Source: Asaia bogorensis | Lineage (GTDB): Bacteria > Pseudomonadota > Alphaproteobacteria > Acetobacterales > Acetobacteraceae | Assembly (NCBI GenBank): GCA_945897825.1 | Contig: CAMDGX010000048.1 | Coordinates: forward strand, 1 to 35,267 | Length of the DNA: 35,267 nucleotides | Direction: 5' to 3' | Shown here: positions 30,974 to 32,241 of the stretch, in pieces | How the letters are laid out: each line of letters opens with the position of its first letter | How positions within the stretch are numbered: position 1 is the stretch's first letter | Translations under genes and position numbers: made by a program | Notes under the pieces: model-generated | Told to the model about the DNA's origin: nothing | Databases searched by the model: none | The model's input: the letters and a program-made list of their open reading frames with translations, nothing else

Positions 30974-31450
30974 CTACTCCTGCGTGAAATCGCCCGACTT
31001 GCCGCCGGACTTGGCCACCACGCGCAGCCCCTCGATCCGCATGGCGCGATCGACGGCCTTGCACATGTCGTACACGGTCAGCGCCGCGACCGAGGCTGCG
31101 GTCAGCGCCTCCATCTCGACGCCAGTCTGGCCGGTGGTCTTCACCGTCGCGGCGATCTCGACGGTGTCGTCTCCGGCGGGTTCCAGATCAATCGTCACCG
31201 AGGTGATCGGCAGGGGATGGCAGAGCGGGATCAGGTCGGCGGTGCGCTTGGCGGCCATGATGCCGGCCAGGCGCGCCACGCCCAGCACGTCGCCCTTCTT
31301 GGCGGTGCCGCCGCGGATCATCGCCAGCGTTTCCGGCAGCATGACCACCCGCGCTCGGGCGGTGGCGCTGCGGTCGGTGACCGCCTTGGCGCCGACATCG
31401 ACCATGACGGCGCGGCCCTCGGCGTCGAAATGGGTGAGCCTGTCGCTCAT
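30974..31450 (-). CDS. moaC: Cyclic pyranopterin monophosphate synthase MoaC
   Basis: A 158-residue MoaC, acting with MoaA to form cPMP, the first molybdenum-cofactor intermediate. Conserved blocks: [36 protein letters not shown], the [11 protein letters not shown] segment, [14 protein letters not shown] ([12 protein letters not shown]) and the C-terminal lysine motif [12 protein letters not shown] overlaps the trpC stop by 4 nt (ATGA). Stop is TAG. Confidence 0.96.
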
Positions 31451-32241
31451 CCGTGCATCAGCGTGCGCGTGGCCGCGGCCAGGTCGTCCTGGCGCAGCAG
31501 GCTTTCGCCGACCAGGAAGCGCTTCACCCCGTGGCCGGCGATGCGCGCGAGGTCGGCATGCAACCGGTAGCCGCTCTCGCCGACGATCACCCGGTCGGCC
31601 GGCACCAGCGGGGCGAGTTCGACGGTGGTCTCCAGGCTGGTCTGCATGATCCTGAGATTGCGGTTGTTGATGCCGATCAGCCGGGTGCGCAGCTTCAGCG
31701 CGCGGGCGAGTTCCTCGGCGTCGTGGCTTTCGGCCAGCACGTCCATGCCGAGTTCGACGGCGCGCGCCTCCATCTCGGCCGCCTGGGCGTCGGACAGCAC
31801 GGCCATGATCAGCAGGATGCAGTCGGCGCCGAGTGCCCGGCTTTCGTCGATCTGCCAGGGATCGACCATGAAGTCCTTGCGCAGCACCGGCAGGTCGCAG
31901 CCGGCGCGCGCGCGCAGCAGGTCGTCGTCGGTGCCGCGGAAATACGGCCCGTCGGTCAGGATCGAGAGGCACGCGGCCCCGCCGCGCTGGTAGGCGGCGG
32001 CCAGCTCCGCGGGGTCGAAATGCGGGCGGATGTCGCCGCCGGAGGGGGAGGCGCGCTTGATCTCGGCGATGATGCCGAATACGCCGGCCGCCACCTAGCG
32101 GTCCAGCGCCGCCGCGAAGCCGCGCGGGGCAGGGGCCCGGGCCAGGCGGTCGGACAGGTCGGCGCCCAATGCCTTGCGCCGGGCCACCTCGGCGGCGGTG
32201 TCGGCACAGATGCGGCGCAGGATATCAGGAGGTGCGCTCAT
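31447..32241 (-). pseudogene. trpC: Indole-3-glycerol-phosphate synthase TrpC, interrupted by an in-frame TAG
   Basis: Full-length TrpC sequence is present in one frame but with a TAG at 32097-32095. Before it, 48 residues (ATG 32241 to ...RGFAAALDR) are the N-terminal extension that caps the barrel. After it, with no frameshift, comes [20 protein letters not shown] and the whole (beta/alpha)8 barrel, including catalytic K62 (counting the stop as residue 49), LRKDFMVDP and GINNRNL, to the TGA at 31447. The stop position commonly carries a lysine (AAG), so a single A-to-T change explains it. TAG is an ordinary stop elsewhere in the window. The next codon is GTG, so the barrel (32094-31447, 215 residues) could be restarted. 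Both ends are 4-nt coupled to trpD and moaC, so the locus is otherwise intact. Options: nonsense mutation, split enzyme, or sequencing error. Confidence 0.85.

What the first reader, a model, noticed from the sequence alone, without database searches (positions are those of the whole stretch)
31447..32241. trpC split by an in-frame amber codon exactly at the cap/barrel boundary
The 48 codons before TAG (32097-32095) are the N-terminal extension of IGPS; the frame resumes with GTG and the complete barrel. No frameshift is involved, and the rest of the trpG-D-C-moaC overlaps are intact. A TAG-GTG junction could allow reinitiation and thus a two-piece enzyme; alternatively it is a fresh nonsense mutation causing tryptophan auxotrophy, or a base-call error (AAG Lys to TAG).
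Basis: partly seen in the sequence, partly recalled or inferred. Interest (0 to 1): 0.72.

Follow-up and report, generated by a model that had tools for sequence, protein, structure and literature searches.

The report
Lone stop codon in bacterial trpC
One draft bacterial genome shows a single stop codon inside its tryptophan-synthesis gene trpC; the gene looks otherwise healthy and is uninterrupted in the relatives examined, so this is most likely a sequence error or a very recent loss-of-function mutation, not a new two-piece enzyme.

Summary
The TAG is really in the sequence (32097-32095, minus strand, codon 49 of trpC) in the only IGPS gene of the assembly. In 8 of 8 congeners the codon is sense (Lys 5, Ala 1, Gln 1, Arg 1) and the next codon is GTG, an ordinary Val, so the 'restart' codon is older than the stop. 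In 88 of 88 other trpC loci held (82 distinct) cap and barrel are one frame.

TAG is a normal stop here: it ends 254 of 973 genes called in 1.14 Mb, moaC and moeA among them; 0 of 41 tRNAs found read it. trpC shows no decay: dN/dS 0.110 against 0.099 between congeners. The other trp genes are open. The GTG has no distinctive Shine-Dalgarno signal, and the barrel alone would lack helix alpha-0, whose removal raised Km dramatically in two IGPS enzymes (PMC7681013).

Best reading: a consensus error or a very recent nonsense allele in a draft genome, probably a MAG. Only reads can separate these. A two-piece enzyme is not excluded, but little supports it. Interest is low.

The parts
32098..32241 (-). 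trpC codons 1-48: N-terminal helical extension (cap) of IGPS
   Evidence: aligns to congener TrpC at 79-92%
32095..32097 (-). in-frame TAG, codon 49 of trpC
   Evidence: 1 TAG inside the match; sense codon in 8 of 8 congeners
31447..32094 (-). rest of trpC: GTG (ancestral Val codon) and the complete barrel, ending in TGA
   Evidence: PF00218 49-254 of 254, 262 bits; dN/dS 0.110
32238..33260 (-). trpD, open, overlaps trpC start by 4 bases
33265..33882 (-). trpG, open
30974..31450 (-). moaC, open, overlaps trpC stop by 4 bases; itself ends in TAG
29764..30969 (-). moeA, open; itself ends in TAG

Best explanation
This is an ordinary single-copy trpC with one nonsense codon at codon 49. The codon is either a consensus or base-call error of a fragmented draft assembly (about half of the probability) or a very recent nonsense allele in the sampled strain (most of the rest). 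If the allele is real, translation ends at codon 49, no full-length IGPS is made, and the strain needs external tryptophan or indole; expression of the downstream moaC and moeA may fall (inferred). The adjacent GTG is the ancestral Val codon and shows no evolved function as a start. Shown: position, copy number in the assembly, state in relatives, TAG as a normal stop, lack of decay. Inferred: error or recency, and the phenotype.
For: Only one PF00218 match in the own genome, with 1 TAG inside. 8 of 8 congeners have a sense codon there and all keep the GTG. 88 of 88 other loci held show one alignment over cap and barrel without a stop (82 distinct, as 6 appear to be the same records twice). 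TAG ends 254 of 973 called genes. Coding-frame ends with an in-frame coding continuation: TAG 13 of 217, TGA 21 of 516, TAA 4 of 83; read by eye, 12 of the 13 TAG cases are gene-to-gene junctions and trpC is the only intragenic one. No CUA anticodon among the 41 tRNAs found. dN/dS of the barrel is 0.110 for G000 against congeners and 0.099 between congeners; cap 0.132 and 0.138. trpE, trpF, trpA and trpB are open (for the matched domains, for the whole ORFs); trpG and trpD are open.
Against: No reads were available, so error cannot be separated from mutation. The genome is 96.68% complete in 208 contigs, so a second trpC in a gap is possible. RF1 (prfA) was not found above its cut-off in the assembly (the best hit is prfB), which at first sight would favour recoding; the many TAG-terminated genes argue for an assembly gap instead.
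Confidence: 0.9

Rival explanations
1. Consensus or base-call error: the organism has an uninterrupted trpC and the assembly is wrong at this place.
For: One base separates TAG from the codon of 5 of 8 congeners. The gene is otherwise under normal constraint and no other intragenic TAG was recognised in the 1.14 Mb scanned, by a scan that needs 40 stop-free coding codons on both sides. The six congener records that could be matched to titled contigs are all MAGs, so this one probably is too. A second private change, codon 54 Glu (7 of 8 congeners, Gly in one) to Val, is also A to T and lies 16 bases away. Private A to T changes are rare: 5 of 225 private changes, codon 54 being one of the five and the TAG codon not counted. 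This is a weak, after-the-fact hint of a local error cluster.
Against: Well-covered assemblies seldom err at isolated bases (general knowledge, not tested). The two changes could both be real mutations.
Confidence: 0.48
2. Very recent real nonsense allele giving tryptophan auxotrophy or a leaky phenotype.
For: Same sequence evidence; the lack of decay in trpC and the other trp genes fits a change too young to leave a trace.
Against: Freshwater taxa are predicted to be 95.9% prototrophs (table passage of PMC10665431; that this organism is from fresh water is inferred from relatives). A stop here could also disturb expression of the genes downstream (inferred).
Confidence: 0.42
3. Two-piece IGPS: ribosomes stop at TAG, reinitiate at the adjacent GTG, and the 48-residue cap peptide and the barrel work together, or the barrel works alone.
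For: GTG directly follows TAG. The pieces coincide roughly with cap and barrel. The barrel is complete, with Glu60 and Lys62 and the other residues invariant in the aligned relatives. The anti-Shine-Dalgarno pairing before the GTG, -5.0 kcal/mol, is at least as strong as that of 43% of called gene starts.
Against: GTG is the ordinary Val codon of 8 of 8 congeners. The split is in none of 88 other loci. The same pairing strength is reached by 35% of 942 random internal codons; 967 called starts have a median of -5.7. Removal of helix alpha-0 raised Km dramatically in Sulfolobus and Thermotoga IGPS (PMC7681013, section 2 part 1 read, which cites Schneider 2005). No sign of long-term adaptation to a split.
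Confidence: 0.05
4. TAG is read through or recoded in this organism (suppressor tRNA, RF1 loss).
For: No prfA above cut-off in the assembly. The tRNA set found is incomplete (no tRNA-Ile called), so a missed tRNA is possible.
Against: TAG ends 254 of 973 called genes, moaC and moeA among them. TAG shows no marked excess of in-frame continuation: 13 of 217 against 21 of 516 for TGA and 4 of 83 for TAA. No CUA tRNA among 41.
Confidence: 0.02

Closest known systems
Monofunctional bacterial TrpC (IGPS), PF00218 / NCBIfam NF001370
   Same: Full-length homology, conserved catalytic region, trpG-trpD-trpC order, one copy in the assembly
   Different: One in-frame TAG at codon 49
Ordinary nonsense alleles and single-base consensus errors in draft genomes
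   Same: Isolated stop, no other decay, absent from the relatives examined
   Different: Happens to fall near a domain border and before a GTG
Trimmed IGPS constructs (SsIGPS delta1-26, TmIGPS delta1-31, TtIGPS delta1-34; PMC5343507, passage seen)
   Same: Barrel with part of the N-terminal extension removed
   Different: Those remove helix alpha-00; here alpha-0 would be lost as well (inferred from the alignment)

Membership tests
Functional TrpC / IGPS | match to the family over cap and barrel | tested here: met
   PF00218 1-254 of 254 with 1 TAG inside; NF001370 373.6 bits over cut-off 348, X at the stop
Functional TrpC / IGPS | one uninterrupted reading frame | tested here: not met
   TAG at codon 49; 88 of 88 other loci are uninterrupted
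Functional TrpC / IGPS | purifying selection | tested here: met
   dN/dS 0.110 barrel, 0.132 cap
Two-piece (split) enzyme | split conserved in at least one relative | tested here: not met
   0 of 8 congeners, 0 of 88 loci
Two-piece (split) enzyme | translation start signal for the second piece | tested here: inconclusive
   GTG present, pairing -5.0 kcal/mol; 35% of random internal codons do at least as well, and 43% of called starts are no stronger
Two-piece (split) enzyme | both pieces made and active together | not testable with these tools
   needs proteomics or complementation
Recoded TAG / amber suppression | TAG not used as an ordinary stop | tested here: not met
   254 of 973 called genes end in TAG
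Recoded TAG / amber suppression | tRNA with CUA anticodon | tested here: not met
   none among 41 tRNAs found; set incomplete
Recoded TAG / amber suppression | loss of RF1 (prfA) | tested here: inconclusive
   no match above cut-off in an assembly 96.68% complete
Old pseudogene | relaxed constraint or further lesions | tested here: not met
   no second stop in the frame

The most novel reading that the evidence does not exclude
The strain has recently acquired a real TAG-GTG junction that turns trpC into two cistrons, and a cap peptide plus a reinitiated barrel supply enough IGPS activity for growth: a naturally split TIM-barrel enzyme at its birth.
Probability: 0.04. Interest if true: 0.5.

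Novelty: already known. Interest (0 to 1): 0.1.

Why it matters
Mostly as a caution: one in-frame stop in one draft assembly, at a suggestive place, is absent from every relative examined. If real, it would be a fresh tryptophan auxotroph in a genus whose other 8 held genomes keep trpC open.

Tried and rejected
Second trpC elsewhere in the assembly: none. Recoding of TAG: suggested by the missing prfA, rejected on stop usage. Old pseudogene: rejected on dN/dS (congener rows covering 60% or less of a gene were left out, and dS was capped at 3 in the means). Engineered restart: the Shine-Dalgarno test gave nothing distinctive. Family-wide rate of stops in trpC: 280 of 299 genomes matched and the rows printed all say none, but the list was cut to the best matches and neither G000 nor the congeners are among those printed, so it gives no full rate. 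Structure prediction on 32 congener and outgroup TrpC sequences (A2) was submitted and had not finished after repeated collection, so no model is used. Paper searches (listings only) on reinitiation after nonsense codons and on premature stops and assembly errors in MAGs gave nothing on this case; the one on tryptophan auxotrophs gave PMC10665431, of which I saw passages. Of PMC7681013 I saw passages and section 2 part 1, of PMC5343507 and PMC8092565 passages. Rfam on 80 kb of contig C4 found only one ordinary tRNA.

Full report
Observation. The minus strand of the window at 32241-31447 is trpC with one in-frame TAG at 32097-32095, codon 49. Codons 1-48 are the N-terminal extension of IGPS; the 215-residue ORF after the stop starts with GTG and holds the complete barrel (PF00218 49-254 of 254). 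The 4-base overlaps of trpD with trpC and of trpC with moaC are intact; trpG and trpD lie 4 bases apart. The window is given as G000:C48:1-35267 in a genome of 4,926,293 bases, 208 contigs, 96.68% complete, and this is its only match to PF00218.

Relatives. All 8 congeners have one trpC match without a stop. At codon 49 five have AAG, one GCC, one CAG, one CGC, and all eight have GTG (Val) next. So the codon that could serve as a restart was there before the stop. A family-wide search matched 280 of 299 genomes; the printed rows all say no stop, but the list was cut to the best matches.

Is TAG a stop here? prfA (RF1) has no match above cut-off in the assembly: the best hit to TIGR00019 (269 bits, cut-off 423) is prfB (480.6 bits, cut-off 370). 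That made recoding worth testing. In 1,143,341 bases of the genome (14 large contigs, 88% or more of each, and the window) a simple self-trained caller found 973 genes, ending in TGA 623, TAG 254, TAA 96; moaC and moeA beside trpC end in TAG. In-frame coding continuation beyond a coding-frame end occurs at 13 of 217 TAG, 21 of 516 TGA and 4 of 83 TAA. I read all 38 junctions by eye: 36 look like neighbouring genes in one frame; the two that look intragenic are trpC (TAG) and a redoxin-like gene (TGA; see Noticed in passing). This reading was not confirmed by homology for each junction, and the scan only sees stops with 40 stop-free coding codons on both sides. The 41 tRNAs found include none with a CUA anticodon, though the set is incomplete (no tRNA-Ile was called). 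TAG is therefore a normal stop, and the missing prfA is most likely an assembly gap.

Is the gene decaying? Mean dN/dS of the barrel is 0.110 for G000 against 8 congeners and 0.099 between congeners; for the cap 0.132 and 0.138. In 10 of the 12 rows compared, G000 is slightly higher than the congeners among themselves, so trpC is not an outlier. Six codons of trpC give a residue found in no congener, one in the cap and five in the barrel. trpE, trpF, trpA and trpB are open. Where a congener counterpart of the window was held, I read the alignments of congener ORFs by eye: in the frames that I take as genes, trpC codon 49 is the one stop within a well-aligned gene, apart from a stop upstream of the called start of the carbamoyltransferase-family gene at 20543-21484, where the congener's mechanical ORF begins further upstream. 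Many other stops in that list lie in alignments that I take for shadow frames. The lesion is thus very young or not real.

A hint about error. Codon 54 is Glu in 7 of 8 congeners (Gly in one) and Val here, again an A to T difference, 16 bases from the TAG. Among 225 private changes at 7892 sites where all but at most one congener agree (9894 sites examined in 12 gene segments), 5 are A to T, codon 54 being one of them and the TAG codon not counted. The coincidence was noticed after the fact and is weak, but it would fit a local consensus error.

Could it be a two-piece enzyme? The site before GTG pairs with the anti-Shine-Dalgarno at -5.0 kcal/mol; 35% of 942 random internal codons do at least as well, and 967 called starts have a median of -5.7, 43% of them being no stronger than this site. 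Among internal codons of called genes 7.3% are ATG, GTG or TTG. The barrel alone would lack both N-terminal helices; [quoted passage not shown] Arg40 and Phe42 of the cap (window numbering; 39 and 41 in the alignment's first sequence) are invariant in the 32 aligned sequences. Nothing points to an evolved split, but a leaky activity cannot be excluded from sequence.

Verdict. It is a consensus error or a fresh nonsense allele in a draft genome, probably a MAG (the six congener records matched to titled contigs are all MAGs). Freshwater taxa are mostly predicted prototrophs (95.9% in a table passage of PMC10665431), which leans slightly to error if this organism is from fresh water; that is my inference from the relatives' record titles, one of which names a pond and one what looks like Lake Pavin.

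Noticed in passing
G000 contig C4:52798-52800 (minus strand), stretch L186: In-frame TGA in a redoxin-like gene (TTWASW-TGA-GCRLDL); both pieces, searched apart, match AhpC-TSA below its cut-off (25.5 and 19.5 bits, cut-off 26), and a stem-loop (-20.4 kcal/mol, z -1.47, 18 of 200 shuffles as good) follows the TGA. Candidate selenocysteine codon; no selenocysteine tRNA was seen in the parts scanned.
   Followed up: partly
own genome G000: prfA (RF1) has no match above cut-off in the assembly although a quarter of called genes end in TAG; probably an assembly gap.
   Followed up: partly
window 32080-32082 (codon 54 of trpC): Private Glu-to-Val difference 16 bases from the TAG, also A to T.
   Followed up: partly
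genomes G006 and G007 of the same genus: No trpF match in 2 of 9 genomes of the genus (G006 98% complete, G007 88%); gap or loss not examined.
   Followed up: no
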